Origin: Sipunculus nudus
Lineage: Eukaryota; Annelida; Sipuncula; Golfingiida; Sipunculidae
NCBI GenBank assembly: GCA_026874595.1
Contig: CM049306.1
Span: forward strand, 47,864,019-47,928,018
Reading direction: 5' to 3'
Length of the DNA stretch: 64,000 nucleotides
A model generated the notes under the pieces. That model made no database searches. It was not told the DNA's origin and saw nothing but the letters and a program-made list of their open reading frames with translations. The position numbers and the translations under genes were made by a program. Shown in pieces: positions 3,676 through 47,620 of this stretch. How positions within the stretch are numbered: position 1 is the stretch's first letter; each line of letters starts with the position of its first letter.

Positions 3676-6470
3676 AATATTTTTAGCAAACCTGTGAGCT
3701 TGTGCGATCGAGTGGCATCGTAAGGCATCCATTGGCTGGCGTCCGGCGTCTTTCATCTGTACGTTAACCTATACTATCTTGAAAACGGCAAGAGTTAGCA
3801 TCACAAAATTTTATGCAAAAAATTAGTCATCTAAAAAACTCTATCGGTTTTTGCTTATTTTCTGGTTAACTGCATTTTCTTAGATTTTATAGGGAAAAAG
3901 TTAAAAATGCTTTAAAAATCGTTTTCCCTGAAACTGTTCAGCCAAATTGTCCAATATTTCACAGAAATGATTCCTGGAACAATCTCTCTAGTTTGTTTGA
4001 ATGGTTTAAGTTCGGTGGTTTTTTGCCGAGTTACAGGAAGTTGAACTTAGTCATCTGTCCAAAAAAGCATACTAAAATTACAATCTCAGAAATGGCTGGA
4101 GCTATCATCACCAAATTTTATGCCAATGTTGGTCACATGAGTCATATCTGAAATTGAGGTATTGGTGGCGCCACCTGCATCAGCTTTTTTGTACGGGGGT
4201 CATCAGTGCCTGTATCATACTGACGGATACAAAAAACTTCTTCTCTGCAACCATTTGGCCAAATTGTTTAATTTCGCACAGAAATGATCATAGGGTAGTG
4301 CTTTCTGAAGTTTGTTCAAATGGTCTCAGTTCAATGACTTTTGGCTGAGTTATGGGAAGCTGAATTTAGTCCTATGCCATAACAGCCCATTTTAGCTCAG
4401 TGGCTACAAAGATCTTCTTCTCAATAACCACTGGGCCAAATTTTTAAATCTCACTCATTAATTATCCTTAGATGTTGATAATTAAGTTGTTCAAATGGTT
4501 TTGGTTCAGTGATTATTGGCTGAGTTATGGGAAGCTTAACTTAGCCATTTTGCTGTATTTTCCCATATGAGTTGTAAACCTGCAAAACATTTTTTGACTG
4601 ACGCCACTGAGGCTAATTTGTTTAATATTTTACAAGAATAATCCCCTGAATAATTCTTATAATAATTGTCTTTTATGGTTCCAAAGAATGAATTTTGGCT
4701 GAATTATAAAGATTGAATTGAGTCATTTTACCATATATGTTAGCTGTGTGAAGCAGATACATCTAGCCTGGCACCAGTTTATAAGCATGCGATACATCAT
4801 GCCTCCAGACAATTAGATTTCAGGTTATCTATGGTTAATATTGACAAGAATGTTTTTAAAAGCTTTTAAAAAATGTAGATTTATGATTTTAGATATTCCT
4901 GATGCCAGGCAATGTTTACAATCACAGGTATACAGCTCTCTGTGGGTATACAAAGACAGCTGTACATGGATTATAAATAATTGGTATCCATACTTAACTC
5001 AGTTCAAGATTTTGCCATCAGTGAGATGTATCTGAATTATAATTTTGCATTCAATATGCATCTGTAGTAATATTTAGCGAACCTGTGAGCTAATGCGATG
5101 GTGTGGCAGCGTCCTTAGTCCATAGTCTGTACATTAACCCATACTATCTCGAAAATAACTGGAGCTAGCATCATGAAATTTAATGCAAAATATTAGACAT
5201 CTGAAAAACTCTGCATTTTCTCAGATTTTATAGAGAAAAAGCTAAAAAAAAACTTTAAAAACCTTCTCCTTCATAACTGTCAAGCCAAATTGTTCAATAT
5301 TTCACAGAAATAATCATTTATACCATCTCTCTCAAGATTGTTTGAATGGTGCAAGTTCAGTGAATTTTGGCCGAGTTACAGGAAGTTGAACTTAGTCATC
5401 TGTCTAAAAAAGCATACTAAAATGACAATCTCAGAAACAGCCAGTTCCATCATCACCAAATTTTATGCCAGTGTTGTTCACATGGGTCATATATGAAATT
5501 CAGGTATTGGTGGCGCCACCTGCATTGACTTTTTTTGTAAGGGGGTCATTGGTCATCTGTACATTAACCCATAATTTCTCAGGAATAGCAGGAGCTACCA
5601 TCCCTAGATTTTATGCAATTATCTGTCACATATCAAATGTTGTGGGATTCAGCTTATTTTTTTTGCTTTCTACATTTACTTAGATATTATAGGGAAAAAG
5701 TTGAAAAACCTTTAAAGTCTTCTTGTGAATGGTCCAGCAAAATTATTCAATATTTTACAGAAATGATCCCAGAGGCAAGCCCTCTCAAGTTTGTTCAGAT
5801 GGTTTGCATATGATTAATTTTAGTTGCATGAATTTGAACGTAGTCATTTTGCCAAGCAAGCATACTGACATTGTAATCTCAGAAATGACAGAAGCTAGCA
5901 TTACCAAGTATTGTGCAAATGTTGGTCACATGACTCATTTGAAGTTGCAGATTTCGTGGTGCCACCTACATTGGCCTATTTTTTATGGGCAAAAACCTTA
6001 TAATTTTAGCCTCTTTCAGCTTAAAATGATTATGATGAAACTGTGAAGTTGAATCGTTCAGTTTTTCAAAAGAATTATCCTAGGACATGTTTCTTTCAAT
6101 CATATCAGAATAGATTGAGTTTGTTGATTTTTGGCTGAGTAGTGAAAAGCTTAAGTTGTTCTTATGGCCATTATTATGTCTATTTCACACTAAGGACTGG
6201 AATAGTGTTCTTCTACAAAATTATTGATTCAATTATAACTTCTTTAACATTGCACAAAAATTATTCCTAGGTGGCCTTTGTTCAAGTTTACTTGAATGAT
6301 TTTTGGTAGAATTATTGGACCTTTAACAGTGAAGAGACCATCTTTTATTATTCTAGATATTTTGATAAAAAGTTTATTAATATGTCAGCTTGAAAAAAAA
6401 AAGCATTTTAGCCAAATGTGTTAACAGATTTTATCAACAGGCCATGATTGTGTCTGTATCTTTACAAGGT
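3676..6470 (+). repeat. Repeat family X, copy 1, left part with internal tandem modules
   Basis: The copy opens with an AACCTGTGAGCTTGTGCGAT block (near 3690). A very similar opening recurs near 5079 and a partial one near 6736, so the region contains repeated starts. Internal modules share lines such as GCCAAATTGTNCAATATTTC (near 3952, 5284) and weaker versions near 4258, 4434 and 4612. Two units contain the exact palindrome GGTGGCGCCACC (4164-4175 and 5509-5520), each 80 bp after a TCTC motif. The same order of modules recurs at 10.1-11.4 kb. Frames of 60 to 105 codons inside it are repeat-derived and carry no domain. It is probably a non-autonomous mobile element with a tandem core; its class is not proven. 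Confidence 0.7.
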
Positions 6471-6474
6471 TGAG

Positions 6475-7475
6475 AAACTGCCAACTGTTTCAGATTCGGC
6501 AACAGATCAAGAGTTCATTCAGTACAGCCAGATATATGTCAAGAGTTCAATCAGTGCAGCCAAACAAAAGGCATGTGATCACCTCATGGGTGACATGTGA
6601 ACACCTCATGGGCACCTTGTGATCACCTCTTAGGTAGCATGTGATCACCTCATGAGTATCATGTGATCACCTCATGATTGATTGATTGATTGATTGATGG
6701 TGTCATGCCCCTCAGGGCTGCGTGTGGAGCCAATCTGTGAGCTTGTGCAATGGTGTGGCTACTATTTCAGATTTGGCAACAGGCCAAAGGTCAGTCTGGA
6801 TCTATTTATAGCTTTGGCAGACTGCCAACTGTATCAAATTAGGCAACAGGTCAAGAGTTCACTCAGTGCAGCCAGGTATAGGTCAAGAGTTCACTCAGTG
6901 CAGTAGCTGCATTGTATTTATAGCTTTGGCTGCATCAGATTTGGCACCAAAGTTCAGCCTGGATCTATTTATAGCTTTGGCAGACTGCCAACTGTGTCAG
7001 ATTATGCAACATGTCAAGATTTCACTCAGTGCAGCCAGGTACAGGTCAAAAGTTCACTCAGTCTAGCCAGGTGCAGGTCATGAGTTCACTCAGTGCAGTA
7101 GCCTGAGCAATTTGTCACAGTTCACCTTGGGCAACTGCCTTTCTCACCTAAGCCTGGTCAGCCCCATGCATCAGACTCAAGGTAAGTTTGATGTATTGGC
7201 CTGATATTTTGACCTGTCTATGTGTTTTTATGGTTTTCTCGTTCACAAGGTAGGTGTCACCACATACAATGACTTATGCACAGTGTATGTGCCTGCTTAT
7301 TTCTACAGAGAAAGTTGATCTATCAGCCTGAAATCGGGCATATTTATTTATATCAAATAGCTTTGTCATATACAAGACTGGTGGTGCCACCTACAATAAT
7401 TTTTGCACAGTGTGTGTCCCTGCTTATTTCTCAGGAGGGGTTTGATATATCAGTTTGAAATTTGGCATATGTATA
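6475..7475 (+). repeat. Repeat family X, copy 1, right part with 163-bp direct repeats
   Basis: The phrase CTGGATCTATTTATAGCTTT starts at 6796 and again at 6959, a 163-bp period. Around it the phrase GTTCACTCAGTGCAG recurs several times between 6850 and 7100. The last part (7200-7470) holds two modules that end in the degenerate palindrome GGTGGTGCCACC (7380). The same order (CAGACTGCCAACTG, then TTCACCCAGTGCAG, then the palindrome modules) recurs at 11.53-12.08 kb, which links this to copy 2. Confidence 0.7.
6572..6698. repeat. 22-bp minisatellite followed by (ATTG)n
   Basis: Five units based on CATGTGATCACCTCATG start near 6572, 6594, 6616, 6638 and 6660. Most units contain the perfect 8-mer palindrome GTGATCAC. 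The array runs straight into about five ATTG steps (6676-6698), which suggests slippage at the end of the minisatellite. Confidence 0.85.
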
Positions 7476-7481
7476 TGTCAA

Positions 7482-7790
7482 GGCCAGATTAAAAAATGGC
7501 CCAATTTTAAACTTGGCCAGCCCAGATCAAAATTTTGATTTGGACTGGCCCAGATCAAAATTCTAATCTGGGCCAGACCATTTTAAAATGGGTCAGCCCA
7601 GATTAAAATTTTGATCTGGGCCTGTCCATATTACAATCCTGTGGTGAAAACTTCAGGATTTAGATCTGGTCTGGCCTTATTTTAAACTGGGCCAGCCCAG
7701 ATTAGAATTTTGATCTGGGCCGGTCAAGTTTACAATCCTGTGGTGGACTGATTTTAAACTAGACCAGCCCAGTTCAGAATCCTAATCTAC
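7482..7790. repeat. Palindrome-rich block of GGCCAGCCCAGATCAAAA units
   Basis: Units of the type GCCCAGATCAAAATTTTGAT alternate with their own complement (ATCTGGGCC). The core CAGATCAAAATTTTGATCTG approaches a perfect palindrome and appears in several variants between 7520 and 7730. A direct step, ACAATCCTGTGGTG, occurs near 7632 and again near 7733. The block would form several cruciforms. The entry motif GTCAAGGCCAGAT matches the small element at 2.5 kb. Confidence 0.7.
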
Positions 7791-8744
7791 TCCTAGACTA
7801 GCTTCAGTTACACTATATTTACCTAGCTAGCCTTTAATCAATTCAATGAATTTGTAAAACATTGTAAGTCAATAATAATTAATATTTAATGAATTTATTT
7901 CATATTCTATAAAAATATCTTTGGTTGGGCTCCTGTCATATTAATATTGTAATTTTACATTTTATGTGAATATCTAAAATATAATAATAAAATATTCATG
8001 TTAAACATTGGTATTTTACAGCTAAAAACTACCAATATAGCTTGCTGAACATGTACATTAATTCAACAAACTAAAACAAAATTAATAAATAATTATTAAT
8101 ATACATGTTACTAAGTGTTGACTTGTGATCCAAGATCTTTAAATTCAAAATTTTATTTGTTATTTAAGGTTATTTATAATAAGTTGGGGTTTTTGGTCAG
8201 TGATCCCCCCCCCCCCAGTCACCCCTTAAAAAATGTGCACATATTGTAACATTGGATCTAGAACTTATAACATACTTCATATTATTATTAAGGAAAGAAG
8301 GCCCTGAAACATCTGTTAAGATACCTGAACTTAAGTCATTGCAATTAGGTGACTGAAATTTAGCAAAATAGAAAAATGTGTATCTAGTGTACATAAATTA
8401 GGTTGATATTGGCTAATTTGTGTGAATTATTAACAAGATCATAATGGATTAAGATAGAACAGTGGGGAAAATATTCACCAACTCAGCATTTTAACTATTA
8501 AAGGTAGAGGATATTTGTATTGCAGCATTTAACTATCTTCAATTTAGATTAGTTATCAGTTATAAGATTAGCTTTGTTTATGTTATTAACTGGAAAGTGA
8601 AACCTCCACCATGTTTGTCACCCTCTGAAATAAAATTCTAAATTCAATTTTCTCGCATGTTCACCTCTTTTTTTTAGACTTGTATATTTTTTATTGACCT
8701 CCCTGTATATTCATTTACAGGTTTCTCAGTCCAACAGTGTAAAA
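7791..8744. other. AT-rich stretch with a C12 run
   Basis: The sequence is very AT-rich with many TAATAAT steps and no coding or RNA feature. A run of 12 C lies at 8205-8216. Nothing else can be supported. Confidence 0.55.
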
Positions 8745-8822
8745 ATATGCCAGTGTAACAGACAGATAGACAGACGCTGGATGGAGACCAATCACTATAG
8801 TTCAGCTATAAAACTGAGCTAC
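8745..8822 (-). repeat. Decayed 5' end of the AGCTCAGCTGAC family, reverse strand
   Basis: Read on the minus strand, the segment gives a TAGCTCAG start, a second half-hairpin near TAGCTGAACTATAGTGAT, then a GTCTGTCTATCTGTCTG run. This is the order seen at the starts of the elements at 13381, 20009 and 24712 (minus). Only the first 75 bp or so can be recognised. Confidence 0.5.
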
Positions 8823-8970
8823 AAAACAAAATTTGTTCTTGAAAACCTTAAAAGGAGTTGAAAAATGAAATCCAAAACTCTGTTGAAACACTGGCCTACT
8901 TTTTAAAGCTTTCCCACATTTTCACAATTCGTTGAGAATTGTGGTGAAATTTTTCCTAAAGAGATGTAAT

Positions 8971-9060
8971 TACAGTGAAACTCCTCTAAGCCAGACACTC
9001 AAGGGACTGGGGGATTTTGTCTGTATTAGTGAGCTGTCCTGTTTAGAGGAGTTTGGCATA
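8971..9060. repeat. Short inverted-repeat segment with a CAGTGAAAC start
   Basis: After TA, the sequence CAGTGAAACTCCTCTAAGCC (8973-8992) is mirrored by TTAGAGGAGTTT at about 9045-9056. CAGTGAAAC with a CTCTAAG continuation is typical of pogo/Tc1-like terminal repeats, but no clean second end with TA was found. It is called only as an inverted repeat. Confidence 0.4.
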
Positions 9061-10110
9061 ATGCATCAATTCTTCATGGAATGTTACTGATATCCTCTAT
9101 TTTGATTATGTTTACGCTTAATTTGAAATATATAAATTTTATTTTAATCATTTTCAAAAGATCTTAAATATGCATTTGAAATTGATAAAATATAATTATT
9201 AAAAAAGGAAAGACAAACACATTCTTTCTACTTTATCAGCTAGGCCTCACACACTAATCTAGGTTGGATGATTGCACTAGGTTTATAGATGATTGATTAT
9301 TGACAGCATTCTGACCGCATGATTATTTGTTAAAGGATAGTCTTCACAACCCATTCACAATAACAAAGTTCAAACTGTCACTAACTAGTTAAGGCTCTCC
9401 GGGCCGTACGCCGATCAAAATGCAAGAACTTTAGTTTTTATGGTGGTTTTTGTCAAATGAAAAGCTGTTTGAAAGCTTAGTTTTAATTTTGATTGGCCAG
9501 CCAATCTTAATAAAGTAATGATTGTGATATCTACACATTTATTGAAATAACAATTTCGACTGTATATTCACATGTAGGTTCACCAAATTTAGCTTGTCCT
9601 CGGGCTGTCCCCCAGCAGATATATGAACAAAAAAATATAACTTGTGATGTCTGTCCGCTTTAGACGGTCGAAATATGTATACTGGATACACAGGCGGGTC
9701 AGGAAATTTTTTCCATTGTCCAGGACAGTGAGTGGTCCACTTTACTGAGATTATGATGAGATCCTGATTGGTGAAAATCCTGATTCAGGCAATTAATAAA
9801 AAAAAGTACTGAATTAATATAAAACATACTTATGATTTTAGTCTCACCAGTGTTTGGCTACTTTATATAAAACTTAATACTTTTGATACATATTTCAACG
9901 AATGACTAGATACAATGAATAACTTTTGTAGAACATGGCAGACACCTGACATGAAGAATAAATCAAGTCTTTCATGGCACAACAAAACTTTTGTCTAAAC
10001 TAAAATATGCTTAACTTGTGAACTTGTGAGTTCATGATGATGGAAATTATCCTGATTGTCAATCAGATAATGTTATATAGGTATTTACTTTGTATACCTT
10101 TGTTTAAATA
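9061..10110. other. AT-rich non-coding stretch
   Basis: No feature can be supported. A short GC-rich island with CCGGGCCGTACGCCGATC lies near 9399 and a GACGGTCG motif near 9663. Both are isolated and unexplained. Confidence 0.5.
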
Positions 10111-10116
10111 TGAATT

Positions 10117-12085
10117 AACTGTCAAGGCAAATTGTTCAATATTTCAAAGAAATAATACCTGAAACAATCTCTCATTTGTTTGAGTGGTTCAAGTTCATTG
10201 ATTTTTGTCCAAGTTACAGGAAGCTGAACTTTGTCATTTGACACTATATAAGCATACTAAAATAACACACTAAAATCTCACAAATGGCAGGAGCTATCAT
10301 GACTAAATTTTATGCAAATGTTGGTCACATGAGTCATATTTGAGATTGTGGTATTGGTAGTGCCACCTGCGTTGATCTTTTTTTTTTGTATGGGCATCAC
10401 CAGTCATGAGTACATTAACCAATAATTTCTCAGGAACAGAGGGAGCTAGCATCACCAACTTGTATGCAAAAATCAGTCATATGTTAAATGTTGAAATATT
10501 GAGCTATTTTTGTGGCGCCACCTGCATCAGTTTACATTTTACAGGGAAAAAATTAGAAAAAAAAAGAAAATTTTCTCCTCCGAAATCATTGAGCCAAATT
10601 GTTCAATATTTCAGAGAAATGATCCCAGAGGAGCTCTCTCAGGTTTGTTCAAATGGTTTGGGTCTGATGAATTTTAGCCGAGTTTCAGGAATTTGAACTT
10701 AGTCATTTGGCCATGTATAAGCCTACTAACAAAACAATCTCAGAAATGGCAGGAGTTAGAATCCCCAAGTTTTGTCCAAATGTTGGTCAAATGGCTCATA
10801 TTTGAAATTGAGATTTTTGTGTGGCCACCTGCATCAGACTCATTATTATGGGCAAAAAAAACTAGTAATTTAAGCCTTTTTCATCCACTACATTAGATAT
10901 ATTTGAATGGTGAAACTCAAGCTGAATCAGAATCAGTTCAATTTTTCACAAGAATTATCCTAGGACAGGGACTCAAATGTTGAAGAACAGATTGGGGTCA
11001 CTTGATTTTTGAAAGATTCTAGACAGCTGAATAGGCCAAATAAGCCTTTTTCAAACTGAGGGCTGCAATAGTCTTCTTCTGCAAAACTGTTGTTTCAAAT
11101 TCTGTATCATTGCACAAAAATGATTCTGAGGTGACCTTAAAGTGTGGTGTTAAAGATGGTGTTTAATTTTACTTAAATGAATTTTGTTTGAATTGTTGGA
11201 CCTTTAACAAAGAAAGGACTGTGAGATACTTTGATAAACAAAGCTAGTAGATTTATTGAAGGAACAAGTGGAGCTGTGTGGGTATATAAGCAAAGCTGTA
11301 CAGGCAACATAAATAATTGGTGTCCATTTCCAATTGATGTGTTAGATAAATCCTTGAATAACATTTATCTGTATTCTGATTTTGCTTTCAATAGGCATCT
11401 GTTATTATTCTAAATGTTTTGATAAAATCAATCTTATGAATATTTCAGCTTGAAAGAAAAGCATTGTAGCCAAAGTCTTTCTGTATGTATAAACAGGCAA
11501 AGATTATATCTGTATTATAAATTATTAGCTTGGCAGACTGCCAACTGAATCAGATCAGGCAATAGGTCAAAAGTTCACTAAGTACAGCCAGGTTCAAGCC
11601 AAGAGGTTCACCCAGTGCAGTAGCTGCACCTGGCATTTGTTTCGGTTCACATGGGGGCCACTGCCTTCCACGGCTTAGCTTGGTCAGTGCAGTGCACATG
11701 ACTCAAGAGAAGTTTGATGTATTGGCTTGAAATTCTGAAATTGTGCCTTGTCCATGCATTTTTTATGGCTTTTTCATACACAAGACTGGTGTTGCCACCT
11801 ACAAAGATTTTTGCATAGTGTATGTCCCTGCTTATTTCTCAGGAGGGATTTGATATAATAGCCTGAAATGTGCATATGGATACATTTCAGATAGCTTCAT
11901 CGTATACAAGACTTGTGGTGCCACCTACAATTGTTTTTAGGTTTAATGCATGCATCTGTGCACATAGTTCAGAAGTGGTATCTGCCTGAAGTTTTACATG
12001 TATATACATCTTTGATGGCATTCTCATACACAAGACTGGTGGCATCACCTAGAATCACTTTTGTTTGTGTACATCCATGCCAGTA
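10117..12085 (+). repeat. Repeat family X, copy 2
   Basis: It is collinear with copy 1. AATTGTTCAATATTTCA-type lines lie at 10131 and 10598. A palindrome cassette at 10276-10367 (degenerate form GGTAGTGCCACC, 80 bp after TCTC) is followed by TGTGGCGCCACCTGC near 10512. CAGACTGCCAACTG is at 11535, then TTCACCCAGTGCAG, and palindrome modules follow at about 11796, 11912 and 12038. The opening block seen near 3690 is missing, so this copy is 5'-truncated or rearranged. Open frames inside (60 to 96 codons) are repeat-derived. Confidence 0.7.
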
Positions 12086-12089
12086 TTTC

Positions 12090-12845
12090 AGGATTGACTT
12101 TTATGTAATTGGTGCTTGTACTCAGGTGCAAAATGTTCAGTACTTGCATTGTACATTTACATATCATATATACTTGAAAAGTAATCAAGCACTTTACAAA
12201 TAATGGTCAAGCATGTTAACATTGCAGCATTAGACTTGATGTATATCCCATTACACAGGTTTTCATTTGGTCCGTAGGCCTAGTACTTATTTAGCTAGAA
12301 TAACTTGCAACTTTGAGAGTGAGTGCGGTTTTGTCATATATATTAAATCAGGTTATAAAATTCAACTAAAAATACCTACCGGGTAGATAATTTTGTAATA
12401 AAAAAATTTTTATAATAGATAATATTGACAAAAGACAAGTGATAGAATATAATGCAGCATATAATTGCAACTTTACATACATGGAATTTTTGTAAACTGT
12501 AATTCTAAAACAAAGAAAAAAAATCATTTAAGAAAATGAAACCTTTTAATATTAATCTGATAACTAAAAGCCACTTTGTGGACATGAAGTTAACATGCAG
12601 ATACAGTCATGAGCTTGATTAGGGGTATAGGCTCATGACCATATCTATGAACACTACAGGAAGTTTTATACCTTTTGAAGATTCTTTTTTAATGAAGATC
12701 ATTTTTAAGAGAAGCTGTAAAGGGTCTGGTCTGATAGGTCCAGATCAGGATCTGGGCCTTGTTATGGGGGCATTAAATAACTAGTAAAGCTTGATACCAG
12801 ATGTTTATTGATAATTGCCTCTATTGATAAAGAATAATAATGAAT
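12090..12845. other. AT-rich stretch with one hairpin
   Basis: The only structure seen is a perfect 9-bp hairpin, GTCATGAGC (12606-12614) against GCTCATGAC (12631-12639), with a 16-nt loop. Near 12720-12765 a GGTCCAGATCAGGATCTGGG phrase resembles the palindromic block at 7.5 kb. No gene is seen. Confidence 0.5.
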
Positions 12846-12849
12846 TTTT

Positions 12850-13374
12850 AGCTCAGCTGACTATAAGTCATCTGAGCTATAGTCGTGGTCCATTGTCCGT
12901 CGTCCGTCCATCTGTCCGTCCGTCCGTAGATGTGGCACGTTTTGAAACCGTAAGACCTAGGAATCCAAAATTCAGCATAATGTTAGATGTCCCCAAGATC
13001 TCCTACCAAGCCAAAAACTGGGTCTTTGCGACTTCGTTCCTTTGAGAAATTAAGGAAAAACCTCAATTTTTTTATTAAAATCCTATTTTCACACTTCAGA
13101 CCTGCCTAATATCAAAACCACTCATCTGTTTTTTCTCATATTTACCGTAAATATTCTTATATATAGTTCCTATGTACATGCCAGAAATTAAGTCTGTTAA
13201 GTATAAATTCTTTAAGTACTGGCCCAAACATAATGGACTTTGTAAAAAATCAGGAAAAATATTTACTCACTTAACATGAAAAATTTTGAAACTAGAGTCT
13301 ATTTTCCCAAGTATATAACTATGTTTAATTAAGGTTATAATTGTTTACCCAAAATTAGATCTGAATTTTGTAAA
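12850..13374 (+). mobile_element. Helentron/HINE-like element, 5' fragment
   Basis: It begins AGCTCAGCTGAC after a run of T, then a mirrored half, GTCATCTGAGCTATAG, so the first 30 bp can fold into a hairpin. GTCCGTCGTCCGTCC repeats follow near 12895-12930. After about 120 bp it diverges from the neighbouring element, so it is a different subfamily. No 3' end is found before the next element starts at 13381. The element is either truncated there or was interrupted by that insertion. Confidence 0.65.
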
Positions 13375-13456
13375 TTTTTTAGCTCAGCTGACTGAAAGTC
13401 ATCTGAGCTATAGCGATCACTCTTTGTCCGTCGTCCGTCTGTCCATCTGTCCGTCC

Positions 13457-15780
13457 GTTAACCAGGCACAAATCGTAACCGCTGGACCTAGAACCTTGTA
13501 ACTTGGGATTCTGAGAGGTCCATAAAAAATCTCCATGGAAACCAGAAATTAGGTCTCTGTTACCCATATCCTTCCCGCTATGGGGCCCCAAAGTACCCCC
13601 CAGAAAAGTCAAAAATTTCATACAAAAACTTCAATATCTCATTAACTACTTGACTGATGGTCTTGATTTTTGGCATACATATTGATCATGAGATGTGTCA
13701 TCACTTCCTGCAGACTGGTGGCGCCACCTGTATTGTTGGAGTTTTTATGAATTTTTTTCTCTATTTTTGAGACCTTTCAAAATGTGAACATCTGTTAACA
13801 AGGCACAAATCGTAAAGACTGGACCTAGAATCTTAATTCTTAACACACTGAGAGGTCCATGAAAAATATCCTTGGAAACCAGAAATTAGGTCTCTGTTAA
13901 CCATATCCTTCGAGCTATGGGGCCCCAAAGTACCCCCCAGAGTAGTAAAAAATTTTATACAAAAATTTCAATATCTCAATAACTACATCACTGATGGTCA
14001 TGATTTTTGGCATACATATTGATTATGAGATGTTCCATCAGTTCCTGCAGACTGGTGGCGCCACCTGTATTGTTCGATTTTTCACGATTTTTTCCTCTAT
14101 TTTTGAGACCTTTAAGGATGCTGTCATCTGTTAGCGTGGCACAAATCGTAACGACTGGACCTAGAATCTTCATTCTCGACACACTGAGAGACCTATGAAA
14201 AGTCTCCATGGAAACCAGAAATTAGGTCTCTGTTACCCATATTCTTTGAGCTATGGGGCCCCAAAGTACCCCCCAGAAAAGTAAAAAATTTCATACAAAA
14301 ACTTCAATATCTCATTTACTACTTGACTGATGGTCTTCATTTGTGGCATAACTATTGATCATGAGATGTGTCATCACTTCCTGCAGACTGGTGGCGCCAC
14401 CTATATCGTTGGCTTTTTATGAATTTTTTTCTCTATTTTTGAGACCTTTCAAAATGTGAACATCTGTTAACAAGGCACAAATCGTAAAGACTGGACCTAG
14501 AATCTTAATTCTTAACACACTGAGAGGTCGGTGAAAAATCTCCTTGGAAACCAGAAATAAGGTCTCTGTTACCTATATCTTTTGAGCTATGGGGCCCCAA
14601 AGTACCCTCCCAGAGTAGTCAAAAATTTCATACAAAAACTTCAATATCTCAATTACTACATCACTGATGGTCATGATTTTCGGCATACATATTGATCATG
14701 AGATGTTCCACCTGTTCCTGCAGACTGGTGGCGCAACCTACATTGTTTGATTTTTTTTACGATTTCTTCCTCAAATTGAGACCTTTAAGGATGCTGTCAT
14801 CTGTTAACGTCGCAAAAATCGTAAATACTGCACCTAGAATCTTCATTCTTGACACACTGAGAGACCTATGAAAAGTCTCCATGGAAACCAGAAATTAGGT
14901 CTCTGTTACCCATATCCATCGTGATATGGGGCCCAAAAGTACCCCCCCGAGTAGTCAAAAATTTCATACAAAAACTTCAATATCTCAATAACTACATCAC
15001 TGATGGTCATGATTTTTGGCATACATATTGATCAAGAGGTGTTTCATCAGTTCTTGCAGACTGGTGGCGCCACCTGTATTTGTTTGGGTTTTTTTTTACG
15101 ATTTTTTCCTCTATTTTTGAGACCTTTAAGGATGCTGTCATCTGTTAGCGTGGCACAAATCGTAACGACTGGACCTAGAATCTTCATTCTCGATACACTG
15201 AGAGACCTATGAAAAGTGTCCATGGAAACCAGAAATTAGGTCTCTGTTATCCATATCCTTTGAGCTATGGGGCCCCAAAGTACCCCCCAGAGTAGTCAAA
15301 AATTTCATACAAAATCTTCAATATCTCAATAACTACAACACTGATGGTCATGATTTTCGGCATACATATTGATCATGAGCTGTTCCATCAGTTTCTGCAG
15401 ACTGAGTGCGCCACCTCTATTTTTTCAAATTTTTACGAATTTTTTTTCTCTTTTTTTGAGACCTTTAAAGATGTGGTTATCTGTCAACAGGGTACAAATT
15501 GCAATAACTGGACCTAGAAACTTCATTCTTGTCATGCAAGGAGGCCCATGAAGAGTACCTGTGGAAACTTGAAATTAGGTCTCTGTTACCCATATCCTTC
15601 AAGCTATAGGACTCTGAAGTATCCCTCAGAATAATGGACAATTTGATACAAAAGCTGAAGTATCTGAACAACTAATGTGGAGATCACCATGATTCTTTGC
15701 ATGGATATTGACCATTAAGTGTTTTTATTAGTTTCTGCAGACTGGTGGAGCCACCTGTATTTTTGTATCCTCCAAAACAA
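13457..15780 (+). repeat. 337-bp tandem array, about 7 units, dimeric organisation
   Basis: Unit starts, marked by GTTAACnnGGCACAAATCGT or close variants, lie at 13457, 13794, 14130, 14466, 14803, 15144 and 15483. The spacings are 337, 336, 336, 337, 341 and 339 bp. Units 1 and 3 share TACTTGACTGATGGTCTT and GTGTCATCACTTCCTGCAG. Units 2 and 4 share ACATCACTGATGGTCATG and TGTTCCA plus CTGTTCCTGCAG-like text, and 5 and 6 follow the second type in this part. The array therefore grew partly as about 673-bp dimers. The last unit is the most diverged, as expected at an array edge. Exact palindromes GGTGGCGCCACC lie at 13717, 14054, 14390 and 15063. Confidence 0.9.
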
Positions 15781-15981
15781 AGTTTTGCAGATACTATGTT
15801 TTTGACCGGGTTCCTCCGCCGCCGCCACGTTTGTTTCCAGAGAGCTCCTCTGAGAAAAATGGACCGATTTTTCCGAAACTTACACCAATTATCTAGTCAC
15901 ATGTGAACCAATTTGTGTTGACCTCTGACCTTTCCCCTCTATCCAGCATCCATTTGTGCATCTGTTTCCACACATAAACCC

Positions 15982-16800
15982 TCATATCTCGGGAACCAAT
16001 TGACCAGTCAGGAAATAAAATTTATACAAATGTAGCCCTTGGATTGCTTTATAACATACACAAAAATGGTGGCGCCACCTGTAACCATGTTTGCACAGTG
16101 TCCATCTGTTCAAAAGCCTTGGGTTAAAATCACTCATATCTCTGCAGTGAATTGACTAATTCACCTGAAATTCGGCATGCATATACATCCAGGATAGCTT
16201 TCTTGATTTTATGGCAGATGGCACCACCTACATTCACGTTCAACTGATCACATCCAAGCTCATATCTCAGGAACCATTTGACCGATTGGGCCAAAATTTT
16301 GCATGTGTATAGATATCACTTAGCTCTTTATCATACGCAAAACTGGTGGCGCCACCTGCAACCATTTTTGCACAGCGTCTGTCTGTTTTCTGCCGTGGGA
16401 TAATGTCACTCATATCTCGGCAGTGGTTTGACATATCTGCCTAAAATTTTGCAGTTTTATACATCCTGGAGAGCTTTCTTGATTTTATGACAGGTGGCGC
16501 CACCTACATTCTAGTTTACGCTGCAGACATCCAAGCTTATATCTCGGGAACCGTTTGAACGATTGGGCCAAAATTTTGCATGTGTATAGATCTCACATAG
16601 GTCAACTGGAGGGGCCACCTGTAACCATTTTTGCACAGCGTCTGTCTGTTTGTCTGCCGTTGGCTAAAATCACTCATACACATGTAGTGGTTTGACTTTT
16701 CTGCCTAAAATTTTGCATATGTATACAACTTGGACATCTTTCTGGATTTGTGGTAGGTGGCACAACCTGCATACACATTTAGGCTGCAGACATCCATGCT
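15982..16800 (+). repeat. 277-bp tandem array built of two roughly 138-bp modules
   Basis: TCATATCTC-type module starts lie at 15982, 16134, 16260, 16410, 16537 and (weakly) 16674. They alternate longer (about 150) and shorter (about 127) spacings, giving a composite period near 277 bp. One module type continues with GGGAACCnnTTGACC, the other with GCAGTGnnTTGAC. Each ends at GGTGGCGCCACC or a variant (exact at 16068, 16345 and 16493). The two module types evidently duplicated as a pair. Confidence 0.85.
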
Positions 16801-17103
16801 AATATGCAACATACCTCACTCTATTTCCCCTTGCCACTCAATCCATGCCTCACTTCAACTGTTCCACTCTGATTTTGGCGGATACAAGTGGTCACTTGTG
16901 GGCTACCCGTATTCTAGTTTTTAAAGTTTACACATTTTTTCTCTATTTTTGAGATATATAAATAAAGACTAAATCTTGGCCTGTTGGTTAATCTGTTTGA
17001 TGCTTCAGTTGAATGGGTATATACTACCATTCTGATGATAAAATTTCCTTTAGCGAATCTCTTCCCTGTCAGCTGAGCGACATGACCCATGGGTCACTTG
17101 TTT

Positions 17104-18354: not shown

Positions 18355-18391
18355 CATCAGCTGAGCACAGTGACCCATAGGTCCCTTGTTT
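18355..18391 (+). mobile_element. Helentron/HINE-type 3' terminus
   Basis: It carries ATCAGCTGAGC, then TGACCCATAGGTCC (a decayed form of the 14-bp palindrome at 17083), then CTTGTTT. This is the same 3' end as the element ending at 17103, on the same strand. It lies directly downstream of the endonuclease relic. Confidence 0.75.
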
Positions 18392-19999: not shown

Positions 20000-20008
20000 A
20001 ATTTTTTT

Positions 20009-20962
20009 AGCTCAGCTGACTCGGAAAGTAATCTGAGCTGTAGTGATCAGTCCATCTGTCCATTAACCAGGCACAAATCGTAACAGCTAGACCTGGAATC
20101 TTCTAACTTGACATCCAGGGAGGTCCATAAAGAAAATCTCCTTGGAACCCTGAAAATAGGTCTCTGTTACCCATATCCACCAAGCTATGGGGCTCAAAGT
20201 ACCCCCCAGAATAATTCAAAATTTGATACAAAAGCTCCAGTATCTGAACAATTAATGTATTGATCACCACAATTTTTTGCATGCATATTTATCATGGAGT
20301 GTGTCATCAGTTCCTGCAGAGTGGTGGTACCACATGGATTTTTTCTCGAATTTTTACACATTTTTCTTTATTTTTAAGACCTTCAAAGATGCAATGTTCC
20401 GTTAACAGGGTACAAATCATAACCATTCAACCAAGAATCTTCTTATTTATATTCTGGGAGGTCCATGGAAAATCTCTTTGGAAACCTGAAATTAGATCTC
20501 TGTTCCCAATATCTATTGAGCTATATGGCTTGTAAATACAACTCAGTTTAATTAAAAATTTGATATACAACCTCCAGTTTTTTAACAACTAACGCATTCA
20601 TCACCGTGATTCTTTGCATGCACATTCATTATGGAGTGTTTCATAAGTTCCTGCAGACTGGTGGCACCACCTGGATTTTTTCTTTTAATTCTTTTTTTTT
20701 TGGGACCTTCAAAGATGCAGTCTTCCATTAACAGGGCACAAATAGTTACCATTGCACCTAGAATCTTCTAACTTATCATCCAGGAAGGTCCATGAAAAAT
20801 CGCTTGGGAACCTGAACTTAGATCTCTCTTGCCCATACCCTATGAGCTATGCTTCAGTTGAATTGGGATACCACCTACAAAATTTGGCATTCATGTGATA
20901 AAATTCCTTTTTTGAATGTCTTTCTAGACAACTGAACGTCATGACCCCTGGGTCACTTGTTT
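20009..20962 (+). mobile_element. Helentron/HINE-like element, 0.95 kb
   Basis: It starts AGCTCAGCTGAC (20009) after seven T and ends GGGTCACTTGTTT (20962). The core has about 2.5 units of the 337-bp type, with starts near 20070, 20401 and 20726 (spacing about 325-331). The 3' palindrome is slightly broken (TGACCCCTGGGTCA). It is shorter than the 13.4-17.1 kb element because it has fewer core units and lacks the 277-bp array. Its 3' part was later duplicated (see 20532-25575). Confidence 0.75.
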
Positions 20963-22270
20963 CTTATAAAAAAATGGTCTATACTTTCTGGCATTGAGTT
21001 CATTATCTCCTCTATTTTCCTGTTTTTTCACTGCACAATCTAAATCTGATATAACAGAGTTACTATTGAAAACATTCAGTTCTTTATGTATGCAAGTGTG
21101 TGTGTAGGATGGCATATAAAATGGCAGAATCAAGTTTACACTAAGCAAAGTGTGGTTGAACGTTTGATATGGTAGGATGCATCTTTAGCGGAAAAGCAAA
21201 TTTTTATGCAAAAGGCAAACCTGTATTAATGCCTTCCATTGGAAATGTGAAAATTATTTCAATTCCTGATTATGGTGTATCCATTATCCCTAGATCTTTA
21301 CGTGTTGCCACGATAACTTAATTACTAGGGCTTTGATGGATTTACACGAAACTCGCCACAACTACTTAGAAATAGATTGTCTCACCTGAGGTTACAAGAC
21401 ATATAGTGGGCATATTATGCACATTTGCAGTGCACTTTTTAAAATTTGGTTTAACCTTCTTGATGAAGGTACAGGATTGACTCATCTCATATCCACTGCA
21501 AAGTCCTTTAATCCAAGCAGTTTTCACCCGAGGGCATGGGTATTTTGAAGGAGAAAAAAAGTTAATGAAGAAAAAATGAAGTTCTAATGAAATGCAGTTC
21601 TCCTGTGGTTAGTTTGTTAGTTAGTAGAAGCATGGGCACTGGACCATAATATCAGTTCAGGAAGTGGTTTATTTTTCTAGTGTAGATGGCTTCCCTTACA
21701 GAAGTCAGTTGTACCTAAAAAGTACCTATTGTGAACCTATTCTGTACCTTGAATGCAAATTTGTACCCACAAAGAACCAAAAATATACTCCAGAAAAAGG
21801 TAGAAAAATTATCTGACCATTTGAATTTAAAAATTTTGTAAATACAACTCAGTATAATTAAAAATTTGATATACAACCTCCAGTTTTTTAACAACTAACG
21901 CATTCATCACCATGATTCTTTGCATGCACATTCATTATGGAGTGTTTCATAAGTTCCTGCAGACTGGTGGCCCCACCTGGATTTTTTCTTTAATTCTTTT
22001 TTTTGAGACCTTCATAGATGCAGTCTTCCATTAACAGGGCACAAATCGTAACCATTGCACCTAGAATCTTCTAACTTGTCATCCAGGAAGGTCCATGAAA
22101 AATCTCTTGGGAACCTGAACTTAGGTCTCTCTTGCCCATACCCTATGAGCTATGCTTCAGTTGAATTGGGATACCACCTACAAAATTTGGCATTCATATG
22201 ATAAAATTCCTTTTTTGAATGTCTTTCTAGACAGCTAAACATCATGACCCCTGGGTCACTTGTTTCTTAT

Positions 22271-24715
22271 AAACAAGTGACCCATGGGTCATGACGCTCA
22301 GCTGCCAAGCATGACCTGTGACATCATGGACTGAGATTCACAACTTTCAGTCAAATTTTGAAGAACCAATTTGCCAATTAGTTGAAAATTTTCTATGACA
22401 ACAGAAATATATATCACCTATGTCTGGTTAAAACACAGTGAATTGATGGTCTGAGGAAAATGCATGATTGTTAAGCTATCAGGAACCATTCCAACAGCTT
22501 GCTTGAAACCTGTCAGTCTCAAAAGGAACACCACAAAGGGCAAATATAAGATCAAAATATATAGCAAAAATCAAGGAAATACATGCAAGAATTTTTGAGA
22601 AACAGGTGCTTCTGTATGAATTTTCATTCAATACAGGCCAACTGTACTGCACTTTTATAAATAATGGTAATATTTATTCAGAAATATTTGACCCAATCCT
22701 TTACAAGATTACATAAATATACATCCAACTGCATTCACTTTAACTGTTTTTGAGATAATATGATCAAAAGGAATTAAAAGATGGTTGCCTGGTGGCCATA
22801 TTGGACTTCTGACAAGTCTGAAATCAGACAACAAACATTCTCTAAATTGGACCAAACATTAAAGAAAAATTACTGAAACTGCCCTGAAGAAAGAATTTCT
22901 AAGGTGGCTAACTGGCAGACATAATGGATTTCTGACAAGTATGACATTTGATATCCCACATTCTCCAATAAGAGACCAAACTTGGGGCAAATTATCGAGT
23001 AATAAATGCCCAAAATAATTCAAAAGGCATGTCCAGGCCCTCATATCAGATTTATAGATATGCAATTGTAAAAAGTGTAAGTCCAATATTTTTTATTATC
23101 ACACTGCTTTTCAATGGGGTCAGCAGGGTAGGTAAACTGCCAAACCTGAAAGAAAAGAAATGCAGAAAGCATGACTAAGAGTCTTGAAATAAAACAAAAA
23201 GCCATCCTAAATCAAGGTTCACATCCACATATTATGAGAACAAACACTTGCTTTTATATGTGGTGATATATATTAAAATATTCAAATATCTAGGAAACTA
23301 AGTTTATTGCTAGGATTCCATAAAATAAACTGCAAAATTTTCCCATCATCTTATAAATCAGTAGCTAAACCTTAATACTATACTCTCATAGTCTTAATGC
23401 CTGGCTGAAGCATTCTGACAACAGTGTTTTTGTTATGAAGTAACGAGGTACTTATCACTGACCCTTTTACTTAATAGGCTGATACAAAAGGGAGTCATAT
23501 GTCACCAGTGTCACTCACAATTACAGCCACACAGGGAGATGTACCAGCTGGAGTGGGATGGTTATATATACAAGAAAAATAGAGATGGTCTATAAAATAA
23601 GTAATTGTGAACATCCCTGACCTATGACCTTGGCCTTTTGCCCATATATCAACTGGATTCTTTCTAAATGATGGGTAACTACTGACCACTTAAATCTGGT
23701 GTAATTACTTGGCAACCAATGGGTGAATACCTTTGACCTGCAACCTTTAACCTGCTGACCAGCTGACCCCAAAATCAATAAGTTATTTATTCAAGCAAAA
23801 AGACCCATAAATATGAAGTTTGAGTCAAACTGAGTGATGCATAGATGTGGCATATGTGAAAGACTGAAGGTTTGGGTTGAACAGTTACACTTGAAATATG
23901 CTCACAAGCATTTAGAACAATTAAATATTGTGACCTTGACCTTTGACTTTTTGACCTCAACATCAATAGGCTTCTTCCCGTACTGGTAGGTAAGCCATAT
24001 ATGACAGATGGAAGGTACAGATTGAAAAGTTTGCCTGAAAATGACTCCACGCAAGAAGTGGGTGCTGTGAACTTGACCTTTGACCTCAAAATCAACAGGT
24101 CTTTTCCCCTGTTGGCAGAGAACCGATATCAGTGCTGGAAGGTTTGGAATGAAAAGTCTAGCTTGAAATGTGTCCACTGCCTTTTCAAAGAAGTGGATCC
24201 TGTGACCCTGACCTTTGACCTTGTGACCTCAAAATCTATAGGATTCTTCTCCAACTTAGTAGGTGAGCTATATGTGAAAGATCAAAGAATTGGGATGAAA
24301 GGGTTGGCTTAAAATGCATCCACAGGCTTTTCAAAGAAGAGGCTCCTGTGACCTTGACCTTTGACCTTTTGACCTAAAAAAAATTATGGTTCTTCCCCTG
24401 TTGGTAGGTGAGCTGTATGTGAAAGATGGAAGGTTTGGGATGAAAATTTTGTCTCAAAGAGTTATTTCTGGGAGGTGCAAACACACCCCATAACTTCGAG
24501 AATATAGGTCACAGTGACCTAATTTCAGGTTTGCAAGGAGATCTTTTTATAACCTCTAAGACTGCATAGGGTTCATGGCCCTAGCCCCTACGGTTACGAT
24601 TTGTGCCCTGCTAACGGACGGACAGCCGGCCGGACGGCCGGACGGACAGACGGAAGGACGCCGGACAAAGACCCATCGCTATAGCCCAGCATGACTGAAA
24701 GTCAGCTGAGCTAAA
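22271..24715 (-). mobile_element. Reverse-strand Helentron/HINE-like element, 2.4 kb
   Basis: On the minus strand it begins AGCTCAGCTGAC (ending at 24712 in plus coordinates), followed by its hairpin partner and a long GTCCGTCCGGCC-type run. It ends with CAGCTGAGCG, the palindrome TGACCCATGGGTCA (22278-22291) and CTTGTTT (22271). The 5' third carries a 135-146-bp array with TGACCT steps (on the plus strand). The remainder (22300-23900) is not obviously tandem. It sits in the T run (A run on plus) of the second copy of the tandem duplication, so it is younger than the duplication. Frames such as 24001-24312 plus arise from the repeats. Confidence 0.8.
23925..24480. repeat. About 140-bp tandem array with TGACCTTTGACCT steps
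   Basis: Units marked by GTGACCTTGACCTTTGACC or close variants start at about 23930, 24067, 24202 and 24348 (spacings 137, 135 and 146). Each continues with CAATAGG-like text, CTTCCCCTGTTGGTAGGTGA, then GATGGAAGGTTTGGGATGAA. The reverse complement of the same unit forms the array at 62.8-63.4 kb. Exact AGGTCAAAGGTCA sites (minus strand) lie at 24074-24086, 24209-24221 and 24355-24367. Confidence 0.85.
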
Positions 24716-25575
24716 AAATGGTCTATACTTTCTGGCTTTGAGTTCATTATCTCCTCTATTTTCCTGTTTTTTTCACTGCACAATCTAAATCTGATATAAC
24801 AGAGTTACTATTGAAAACATTCAGTTCTTTATGTATGCAAGTGTGTGTGTAGGATGGCATAAAAAATGGTAGAATCAAGTTTACACTGAGCAAAATGTGG
24901 TTGAACGTTTGATATGATGGTAGGATGCATCTTTAGCGGAAAAGCAAATTTTATGCAAAAGGCTGACCTGTATTAATGCCTTCCATTGGAAATGTGAAAA
25001 TTATTTCAATTCCTGATTATGGTGTATCCATTATCCCTAGATCTTTACGTGTTGCCACGATAACTTAATTACTAGGGCTTTGATGGATTTACACGAAACT
25101 CGCCACAACTACTTAGAAATAGATTGTCTCACCTGAGGTTACAAGACATATAGTGGGCATATTATGCACATTTGCAGTGCACTTTTTAAAATTTGGTTTA
25201 ACCTTCCTGATGAAGGTACAGGATTGACTCATCTCATATCCACTGCAAAGTCCTTTAATCCAAGCAGTTTTCACCCAAGGGCATGGGTATTTTGAAGGAG
25301 AAAAAAAGTTAATGAAGAAAAAATGAAGTTCTAATGAAATGCAGTTCTCCTGTGGTTAGTTTGTTAGTTAGTAGAAGCATGGGCACTGGACCATAATATC
25401 AGTCCAGGAAGTGGTTTATTTTTCTAGTGTAGATGGCTTCCCTTACAGAAGTCAGTTGTACCTAAAAAGTACCTATTGTGAACCTATTCTGTACCTTGAA
25501 TGCAAATTTGTACCCACGAAGTACCAAAAATATACTCCAGAAAAAGGTAGTAAAATTATCTGACCATTTGAATTT

Positions 25576-29967: not shown

Positions 29968-30420
29968 ATGCTCAGCTATAGCAATCACCCTTTTTCTGGC
30001 ATCCTTTATAGTGCTGCCTGGCCATCTGTTAGCAGACACAAATCATAACTACACTTTTAGCTACATAGACACTAAATGAATAGTCAGGGAAGTCCTTAAA
30101 AACCCCCTGTGAAACCTGAAATGAGGTCATTACAAACTATATATTCTCTGAGTTATAGGGGTTATTTGAGCATCCCAGAAAATTAAAAATTTTGATACAA
30201 AGCATAAATATACAAACGCTCCAATATCTTAATAATTAATGCTTGGATTACCATGAATGTTGGCTTGCATATTGATCATTGACATCAGCTACTTAAGACT
30301 GGTGATACCACTTTAATTTTCATCTAGTGTCCTTTAACCATGTATATTAATTGATCATAACTGGTTTTATCATGAAGACTCGTGGAGCCATCTGAATTTT
30401 TTTCCATACTGAAAAATTTT
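29968..30420 (+). repeat. Decayed HINE-like fragment
   Basis: It starts with GCTCAGCTATAGCAATCACC. It then follows the order of the 337-bp unit: GTTAGCAGACACAAATCATA, TGAAACCTGAAATGAGGTC, TTTGATACAAA, CAATATCTTAATAATTAATG, TGCATATTGATCATTGA, and GACTGGTGATACCACT as the worn palindrome. About one unit is present and no 3' end is recognised. Confidence 0.6.
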
Positions 30421-31535: not shown

Positions 31536-31539
31536 CTTC

Positions 31540-33029: not shown

Positions 33030-33690
33030 GCATGTATGAACCATTGGATGAACATGCAAAATATTTGGTTGATACTCTGAACCACTCATGAGAAAAGGGC
33101 ATCAGTGAATTTTATGAAAATGTGATGGTATGTGGCTTCAAAAGTCTGTTCTAAGATAAAGCTATCCAAGATGGATAAACATGTAAAATTTCAGGCTGAT
33201 ACATCCATCCACTATTTAGATAAATGCAAGTTTCACCCAAAACAGATGTTTGAATGGACACTACATGAAAACAATCATAGGTGGTTCCACCAGGCTTGTG
33301 TATGAGATTCAGAGATCAAAGATATATAGACATGCAAAATATCAGGCAGATATGTCAGACCACTCTTGGGAGAGATGCATGGATGTATTCTATAAAGACA
33401 TAAGAACTGGTGGTGCCACCTGTCATGTATGAGAAAGCTATCCAAGATGGATGGACAAGCCAAATTTGAGGCTGATACATTGAATCACTCATGAATACAA
33501 GACGAAGGTATCCAGGATGTACGGACATGGACAAAAATCAGCCAAATACAATGAACCAATCATGAGATATGTGCTATTATCACTAAAAAAAGATGCACAG
33601 ATGGACACTGCATAAAAAGGATTGAGGTGGCACCACCAATCTTTGTTAGAAACAAATTCTCCATGAATCAGACACATTACCCCAGTAGTT
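33030..33690 (-). repeat. Reverse-strand array of the roughly 138-bp palindrome modules
   Basis: Read on minus, the segment gives repeated order: CAGCCTGAAATTTTACATG-like text, ATCCATCTTGGATAGCTTT, CATACACAAG-like text, and GGTGGCACCACC-like palindromes (plus positions about 33409 and 33625). This matches the 277-bp array at 15.98-16.8 kb and the modules at 7.3 and 11.8 kb. At least four worn modules are present. No element ends are seen. Confidence 0.6.
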
Positions 33691-47440: not shown

Positions 47441-47500
47441 GGGGAGGTCAGAGTATTTAAACCCTTTTTACTAGCTGGAATTACATTGTTTTGACATGTT

Positions 47501-47620
47501 TTCACAAATTGTAAGGCAATTTACCTTTCCTGTTATTGTTTTCACAAATTGTAAGGCAATTTACCTTTCCTGTTATTGTTTTCACAAATTGTAAGGCAAT
47601 TTACCTTTTCTGTTATTGTT
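47501..47620. repeat. 40-bp tandem triplication
   Basis: The unit starts TTCACAAATTGTAAGGCAAT at 47501, 47541 and 47581. The copies are almost identical (one C to T change in the third). This is a very recent local expansion. Confidence 0.95.

What the first reader, a model, noticed from the sequence alone, without database searches (positions are those of the whole stretch)
4084..16504. A cassette with an 80-bp spacing is shared by three different tandem repeats
In family X (4084 to 4164; 5429 to 5509; 10276 to 10356), in the 337-bp units (13637 to 13717; 13974 to 14054; 14310 to 14390; 14983 to 15063) and in the 277-bp units (15987 to 16068; 16265 to 16345; 16415 to 16493), a TCTC motif is followed after 78-81 bp, most often exactly 80, by GGTGGCGCCACC or a close variant. 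Between them sits a loose common order: a (G/T)xAAC-like step, TTGAxx, then a TTTTGGCAT-ACATAT-like step. The surrounding sequences do not align by eye. Either all three arrays descend from one ancestral module or this spacing is selected, as binding-site pair, nucleosome phasing or RNA fold.
Basis: seen in the sequence. Interest (0 to 1): 0.8.

Follow-up and report, generated by a model that had tools for sequence, protein, structure and literature searches.

The report
Shared core in nested jumping-DNA repeats
Several different tandem repeats in this animal DNA share one short, diverged module ending in the palindrome GGTGGCGCCACC; two of the arrays sit inside non-coding rolling-circle-type jumping elements, one nested in the other, so the fixed spacing mostly reflects common descent, while the palindrome itself looks like a preserved protein-binding site.

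Summary
All ten listed pairs are present; GGTGGCGCCACC occurs 9 times exactly and 32 times with up to 3 mismatches (3.2 expected), with TCTC exactly 80 bp upstream in 11 of 32. With the palindrome excluded, spacers of the 277-, 126- and 337-bp arrays still match, mostly in register, so the cassette is one diverged module; the link to family X is weak. In the 337-bp array the spacer shows no indel deficit once a T-rich tract is set aside, so selection on the distance is not shown. RNA structure is not supported. The palindrome itself looks constrained: outside its CpG it varies 1.8-4.4 times less than the spacer in five of five families. The 337-bp array lies in an element with HINE (non-autonomous Helentron) ends; the 277-bp array lies in a second HINE-like element inserted into a T-run of the first. 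A third related element has a paralogous empty site. Such elements are known from bivalves. Family X is not shown to be a HINE. The genome-wide test could not be run (genome search did not complete). Open: what binds the palindrome.

The parts
4067..4195 (+). X-family cassette (TCTC 4084, palindrome 4164-4175)
5412..5540 (+). X-family cassette (palindrome 5509)
5858..5986 (+). X-family cassette with decayed palindrome CGTGGTGCCACC at 5955
10259..10850 (+). X-family cassettes with palindromes at 10356, 10511, 10818
7160..7490 (+). 126-bp-unit array with cassettes (palindromes 7253, 7380; truncated third copy at 7420-7483)
11690..12066 (+). 126-bp-unit array with cassettes (palindromes 11788, 11914, 12038)
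13380..13444 (+). Left end of element E1: subTIR and its inverted copy (13380-13393 / 13397-13410, 3 nt between arms), then GTCC microsatellite 13426-13444
13457..15765 (+). 337-bp tandem array of E1; cassettes with palindromes 13717, 14054, 14390, 14727, 15063, 15404, 15744
15763..16922 (+). Nested HINE-like element carrying the 277-bp array: 5' subTIR TTGTATCCTCC (15763), 3' subTIR GGCGGATACAA (16877-16887), 3' palindrome ACAAGTGGTCACTTGT, end in CTAGTTTTT; in the T-run after the last 337-bp palindrome (ends uncertain by a few bases)
15970..16790 (+). 277-bp (dimeric) array; cassettes with palindromes 16068, 16217, 16345, 16493, 16608, 16756
16923..17066 (+). Resumption of the interrupted E1 (parts align to element E2 at 16927-16954 and 17000-17110)
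17067..17103 (+). Right end of E1: 3' subTIR TGTCAGCTGAGCG and stem-loop TGACCCATGGGTCA, ending TTGTTT
20003..20965 (+). Related element E2: same left end, 2.4 copies of the 337-bp unit (palindromes 20323, 20660), decayed right end
21836..22279 (+). Second copy of the right half of E2 (95.7% identical; palindrome 21966), part of a segmental duplication
22271..24718 (-). Related element E3 on the - strand: left end 24700-24712, right end 22271-22307; absent from the duplicate copy at 20969-20976
30210..30410 (+). Decayed 337-type cassette(s)
33109..33730 (-). Four further cassettes on the - strand, three of them closest to the 126-bp type

Best explanation
The cassette is the core module of the central tandem repeats of several non-coding mobile elements. 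SHOWN: the modules are homologous between the 277-, 126- and 337-bp arrays (X weak); the 337-bp array is bounded by HINE-type ends; the 277-bp array is in a second element nested in the first; the palindrome varies less than the spacer. INFERRED: the elements were moved by an autonomous Helentron's Rep/Helicase (rolling circle, T-rich targets); arrays grew and shrank by unequal exchange, giving units of 126 to 337 bp around the same module; the 80-bp spacing was inherited, not separately selected. INFERRED and less sure (about 0.35): the palindrome was kept because a protein binds it, as a dimer site or as two overlapping copies of a zinc-finger core, so that each array works as a cluster of binding sites, either helping the element (transcription, replication or open chromatin for insertion) or acting in the host as an insulator-like or regulatory cluster. 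CpG decay of the site to TG/CA in older copies would then inactivate it.
For: Masked-palindrome cross-hits: the 277-bp profile finds four 126-type copies at E 4e-8 to 5e-5 and the 126-bp profile finds 5 of 6 277-bp copies at E 7e-9 to 7e-5, with shuffled-window maxima of 14.3 and 8.8 bits against hits of 19-29 and 18-31 bits. The 277-bp profile puts 10 of 10 337-bp copies at shift 2-3, 0 of 5000 resampled null means being as high. Consensus spacer identity 0.51-0.71 against palindrome 10-12 of 12, the palindrome differences being at the CpG. T at +12 in 27 of 27 copies and A at +15 in 26 of 27, positions not used to pick the copies. Non-CpG palindrome columns less variable than spacer in 5 of 5 families. 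HINE ends: inverted arms, GTCC microsatellite, 3' subTIR plus stem-loop, T-rich boundary as described for oyster Cg_HINE (PMC7492417) and DINE-1/HINE (PMC4067079). Nesting: left and right flanks of 15763-16922, joined, align to intact 337-bp units. Paralogous empty site for E3.
Against: In one search five family pairs are not significant (X to 337 P 0.31, X to 126 0.40, 337 to X 0.80, 337 to 126 0.25, 126 to X 0.10), and the 337-bp profile puts only 2 of 6 277-bp copies in register although its mean score is high. In one search the 337-bp profile finds 2 of 6 277-bp copies at E 0.04-0.08 (9-10 bits, not above the shuffled maximum of 10.5), and the 277-bp profile finds 1 of 10 337-bp and 1 of 6 X copies at E 0.5-0.7. 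No subTIR/IR pair was found at X's conserved head. Palindromes were chosen by similarity (up to 3 mismatches), which favours low variability; for the 337-bp (E1) and 277-bp arrays every array unit is included, but the decayed copy at 30210 is not. No Rep/Helicase was found, but only 10 of 100 stop-to-stop frames of 70 aa or more were tested. The nested element's subTIR was picked by eye from one copy; one other place in the window (48) matches it with 1 mismatch. No animal sequence outside the window could be compared.
Confidence: 0.8

Rival explanations
1. The 80-bp distance itself is selected: a pair of binding sites (TCTC motif and palindrome) held on one face of the helix or by a nucleosome.
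For: Spacing within 3 bp of 80 in 17 of 32 matches while unit length ranges from about 126 to 337 bp; raw gap rate in 337-bp units is lower in the spacer (0.015 per mismatch against 0.055); in 5 of 6 X copies aligned, 1 gap interval in the last 92 columns against 5 in the 166 upstream.
Against: The 337-bp difference comes mainly from a T-rich tract: outside it, 2 events in 189 columns against 1 in 94. Spacer sequence is no better conserved than the rest of the unit (79% against 80% identity). Copies with shifts of about +9 and -12 bp persist.
Confidence: 0.15
2. The cassette is a structured RNA or ribozyme.
For: Palindrome could form a 4-bp stem with a GCGC loop (by reading).
Against: RNAalifold predicts 0 pairs on 23 cassettes; folding z-scores -1.11 to 0.69 in 7 of 7 cassettes folded; no Rfam family in the window at gathering cut-off.
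Confidence: 0.03
3. X joined by convergence or by local gene conversion of a short palindrome tract, not by descent of the whole module.
For: X spacer similarity is weak (z 0 to 2.6); three X-type modules lack the palindrome (implied sites 3857, 5227, 5657, read).
Against: 277-bp profile hits 6 of 6 X copies in register (shift 0-5); X has TCTC at exactly 80 bp in 4 of 6 copies and the downstream T in 6 of 6 and A in 5 of 6.
Confidence: 0.3
4. The palindrome is a CTCF-like insulator site spread by the elements.
For: Reverse strand reads TRYAGGTGGCGCC; the guide oligo for a human CTCF site upstream of EGR1 contains AGGTGGCGC (PMC6344568, one passage seen). [quoted passage not shown]
Against: Only about 10 bases of the core match; the CCA part of the consensus (recalled) is absent. 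Short G+C-rich matches are weak evidence; E2F-type GGCGCC sites (recalled) fit as well. That the species is a mollusc is not shown.
Confidence: 0.15

Closest known systems
Cg_HINE elements of Crassostrea gigas with central satellite-like repeats (PMC7492417; passages and section 7 read)
   Same: Left end with subTIR, complementary inverted repeat and, in several elements, GTCC/GTCY microsatellite; central tandem array; right end with subTIR and palindrome; some elements with two arrays; some monomer clusters sharing only two conserved segments.
   Different: Monomers there are mostly 140-180 bp; here about 126, 277 (dimer) and 337.
BIV160/Cg170 satellite family, pearl and DTC84 elements of bivalves (PMC5139131, passages and section 15 read; original papers not read)
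   Same: Diverged monomers that share two conserved motifs; DTC84 is said to hold a conserved palindrome near the repeat junction; Cg170 arrays lie in Helitron-superfamily elements.
   Different: Sequence identity of the motifs untested.
DINE-1/HINE of Drosophila and mites (PMC4067079; abstract and passages read)
   Same: Structure, T-rich targets, boundaries confirmed by paralogous empty sites, optional tandem repeats.
   Different: Animal group (inferred) and repeat sequence.
CTCF-site clusters spread by transposable elements in mammals (recalled; PMC3368268 seen in search listing only)
   Same: Idea of binding sites amplified by mobile elements.
   Different: No binding data here.

Membership tests
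HINE (non-autonomous Helentron): element E1, 13380-17103 | 5' subTIR with complementary inverted repeat a few bp away | tested here: met
   14-nt arms, 93% complementary, 3 nt apart
HINE: E1 | microsatellite (GTCC/GTCY type) after the left end | tested here: met
   GTCCGTCGTCCGTCTGTCC at 13426
HINE: E1 | 3' subTIR (inverse of 5' subTIR) followed by a palindrome near the 3' end | tested here: met
   TGTCAGCTGAGCG at 17067, 2 mismatches to the inverse of the 5' subTIR, then TGACCCA/TGGGTCA. It ends about 24 bp from the presumed 3' end, closer than the 38-60 bp given for mite HINEs
HINE: E1 | insertion at TT / T-rich target | tested here: inconclusive
   T-runs at both boundaries; no empty site for E1 itself
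HINE: E3, 22271-24718 (-) | subTIRs, microsatellite, 3' palindrome, T-rich target with paralogous empty site | tested here: met
   the duplicated copy lacks the insertion at 20969-20976. The occupied site has 9 As where the empty one has 7, so at most a 2-bp duplication or two terminal Ts of the element (read). Its inner inverted repeat is degenerate by reading
HINE: nested element with the 277-bp array, 15763-16922 | subTIR pair, 3' palindrome, T-run insertion | tested here: met
   TTGTATCCTCC / GGCGGATACAA, 1 mismatch; ACAAGTGGTCACTTGT; joined flanks align to 337-bp units
HINE: nested element with the 277-bp array | inverted repeat beside the 5' subTIR and a microsatellite in the left end | tested here: inconclusive
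   Only a partial GATAC match and a short CCGCCGCCGCC run by reading; one copy only
HINE: family X elements | subTIR plus inverted repeat at left end; subTIR plus palindrome at right end | tested here: not met
   Conserved head at 3689, 5080, 6732 but in 3600-3800 and 5050-5150 only 6-9 nt self-palindromes; right end not identified. X is therefore not filed as a HINE
Helentron superfamily | autonomous partner with Rep/Helicase and endonuclease | not tested
BIV160/Cg170 satellite family | the two published conserved motifs | not testable with these tools
   Motif sequences did not appear in the text I read; they are in additional files
CTCF binding site | bound by CTCF in vivo | not testable with these tools
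   Only a core-string resemblance

The most novel reading that the evidence does not exclude
One palindromic protein-binding site, TGGTGGCGCCACCTRYA, has been kept for a long time as the only constrained part of otherwise fast-diverging satellite-like repeats in several distinct rolling-circle element families, so that these elements spread ready-made clusters of an insulator-type (possibly CTCF) site that is later switched off by CpG methylation decay.
Probability: 0.15. Interest if true: 0.75.

Novelty: new member of a known kind. Interest (0 to 1): 0.42.

Why it matters
Bivalve satellite-like monomers of different Helitron-type elements have been reported to share short conserved motifs (PMC5139131, PMC7492417); no reason was given in the parts I read. 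Here the shared part can be pinned to a specific palindrome that resists change while its spacer drifts, which turns the question why motifs are conserved in such repeats into a direct binding experiment. It also shows how two arrays that look like neighbours are one element nested in another.

Tried and rejected
Structured RNA: not supported. Selection on the distance: suggested by raw gap counts, gone when the T-rich tract was separated. The 337-bp unit as a decayed dimer of about 168 bp: five weak profile hits near the half-way point (E 0.25 to 7.9), but comparing the two halves of the unit gives nothing above shuffles (192 of 300 shuffles as good; 277-bp consensus against the first half, 124 of 300); rejected. 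Protein-coding origin: the window has 2 start-to-stop frames of 120 aa or more, neither in the cassette arrays; 10 of 100 stop-to-stop frames of 70 aa or more were scanned against Pfam and gave two weak matches (DUF5036 E 0.014, Methuselah_N E 0.004), both under Pfam's cut-off.

Relatives elsewhere: the viral contigs pattern TATCTC-gap-palindrome gave 13 stretches with gaps 62-83; by reading the sequence around each match I saw no other part of the module in any and take them as chance. Two further viral contigs patterns and two genome contigs patterns gave 0. These collections hold viral contigs and prokaryote genomes, so this says nothing about animals. Papers: the 12-mer and an 11-base part of it were searched as text and appear in 1 and 2 papers, by title unrelated; CpG-decayed forms and spacer-like strings appear in 8 papers, by title unrelated; GTCCGTCCGTC with mollusc, 0 papers. 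This does not show that the motif is unpublished: supplementary files and most journals were not searched. Searches for CTCF in molluscs with transposable elements, BIV160 and Helentron with conserved motifs listed papers of which I opened only those cited.
Full report
WHAT WAS CHECKED. GGTGGCGCCACC is a perfect palindrome; the window has 32 + strand matches with up to 3 mismatches against 3.2 expected. TCTC lies exactly 80 bp upstream in 11 of 32 and 77-83 bp upstream in 17 of 32 (significance and its limits). For later counts I used 27 of the 32; dropped were 29181 and 30381 (three mismatches each) and 33280, 33409, 33626 (region of - strand copies). The profile used 26 of the 27 (7253 left out) and alignment A1 used 23 of the 27 (7253, 10511, 12038, 16608 left out).

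ONE MODULE. Aligned on the palindrome, copies of the arrays show the same order: TCTC, a variable stretch, an AAATTTTGCAT-like step, TAT, and the palindrome followed by T-R-Y-A; X fits least well. To avoid circularity I masked the palindrome and built profiles from the spacer of one family at a time. The 277-bp profile found four 126-type copies at E 4e-8 to 5e-5 (one of them the truncated copy at 7420; 11788 only at E 0.2; 7253 not listed), and the 126-bp profile found 5 of 6 277-bp copies at E 7e-9 to 7e-5 (16068 not listed). Of the 8 such hits that have a palindrome, 6 imply it within 2 bp and two are off by 7 and 12 bp, at 12038 and 16608, which carry indels. The 337-bp profile found 2 of 6 277-bp copies at E 0.04-0.08, in register but not above the shuffled maximum; the 277-bp profile found 1 of 10 337-bp copies and 1 of 6 X copies at E 0.5-0.7, in register.

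A gapped log-odds comparison of 90-bp spacers against 300 background stretches is more sensitive. 277-bp profile: 10 of 10 337-bp copies at shift 2-3 and 0 of 5000 null means as high; 4 of 5 126-bp copies at shift 0 (the fifth at 9), 0 of 5000; 6 of 6 X copies at shift 0-5, P 0.0036. 126-bp profile: 277-bp, 0 of 5000; 337-bp P 0.0002, 7 of 10 at shift 2-3. 337-bp profile to 277-bp: 0 of 5000, but only 2 of 6 in register. X to 277-bp: P 0.037, 4 of 6 within 2 bp. Not significant: X to 337 0.31, X to 126 0.40, 337 to X 0.80, 337 to 126 0.25, 126 to X 0.10. Copies within a family are related, so these P values are optimistic. Consensus spacers are 0.51-0.71 identical (z 2.0 to 10.5 for nine pairs, 0 for X against 126), while palindromes are 10-12 of 12 identical.

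WHAT IS CONSTRAINED. T follows the palindrome in 27 of 27 copies and A stands three bases further in 26 of 27, although neither was used to pick copies. The two CpG positions decay mostly to T and A (6 and 6 of 27), as expected where CpG is methylated; window CpG observed/expected is 0.226. Leaving the CpG out, mean variability in palindrome against spacer is 0.083/0.147 (X), 0.050/0.148 (337), 0.033/0.144 and 0.067/0.136 (the two 277-bp halves) and 0.100/0.206 (126); 25 of 332 ten-column spacer windows are as quiet as the palindrome of their family. Choosing copies by up to 3 mismatches to the palindrome biases this downwards, least in the 337-bp and 277-bp arrays, where every array unit is included. 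The distance, by contrast, shows no sign of its own selection in the 337-bp units. X has 1 gap interval in the last 92 columns against 5 in the 166 before, in 5 of its 6 copies, too few to decide.

THE CARRIERS. At 13380 a subTIR and its inverted copy are followed by a GTCC microsatellite; at 17067 the inverse subTIR is followed by a stem-loop and TTGTTT. These are the parts listed for oyster Cg_HINE (PMC7492417) and DINE-1/HINE (PMC4067079). Related elements lie at 20003-20965, 22271-24718 (- strand) and, as remnants, at 12845 and 29945. The 277-bp array is not part of this element by origin: sequence 15763-16922 has its own subTIR pair and 3' palindrome, and its flanks, joined, align to intact 337-bp units. 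The subTIR pair was noticed by eye; in the whole window one other place (48) matches it with 1 mismatch. The - strand element has a natural control: 20530-21829 is duplicated at 21836-25576, and only the second copy holds the insertion, in an A-run (T-run on its own strand). The X and 126-bp arrays occur together twice (5274-7490 and 10116-12066), so they look like one composite, but X lacks recognisable HINE ends.

HOW IT PROBABLY WORKS. Rolling-circle elements without genes carry central arrays. The arrays change length and unit size; the elements scatter and nest. Through this the spacer drifts but the palindrome is kept, which is most simply explained by a protein that binds it. Which protein is unknown. 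The reverse strand AGGTGGCGC occurs in a guide oligo for a human CTCF site (PMC6344568, one passage); E2F-like factors (recalled) are an alternative. The binding step is inference.

LIMITS. The species is not known to me; a mollusc is likely from the oyster-like element ends, but that is inference. No genome-wide count was possible because the genome search did not complete in 14 tries. The bivalve monomer sequences needed for a direct comparison were not in the text I read.

Noticed in passing
20530-21829 and 21836-25576: Segmental tandem duplication (97.9% over 865 bp and 95.7% over 447 bp); the second copy is interrupted by the - strand element, giving a paralogous empty site.
   Followed up: yes
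31528-33009: Large array of about 30 copies (68% matches) of a roughly 50-bp unit, directly beside - strand cassettes at 33.1-33.7 kb.
   Followed up: no
6572-6676 and 7009-7098: Short 22-bp and 32-bp tandem arrays between the X and 126-bp arrays.
   Followed up: no
18355-18391: A second right-end-like sequence (CATCAGCTGAGCACAGTGACCCATAGGTCCCTTGTTT); the subTIR scan (up to 3 mismatches) shows no + strand left end between it and E1.
   Followed up: no
23600-24450: Repeated GTGACCTTGACCTTTGACCT-like steps (by reading), with a 146-bp period at 24161-24445, inside the - strand element: another tandem type carried by the same element family.
   Followed up: no
47497-47620 and 58785-58914: Very homogeneous (98% and 97% matches) 40-bp and 28-bp tandem arrays, presumably young.
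   Followed up: no
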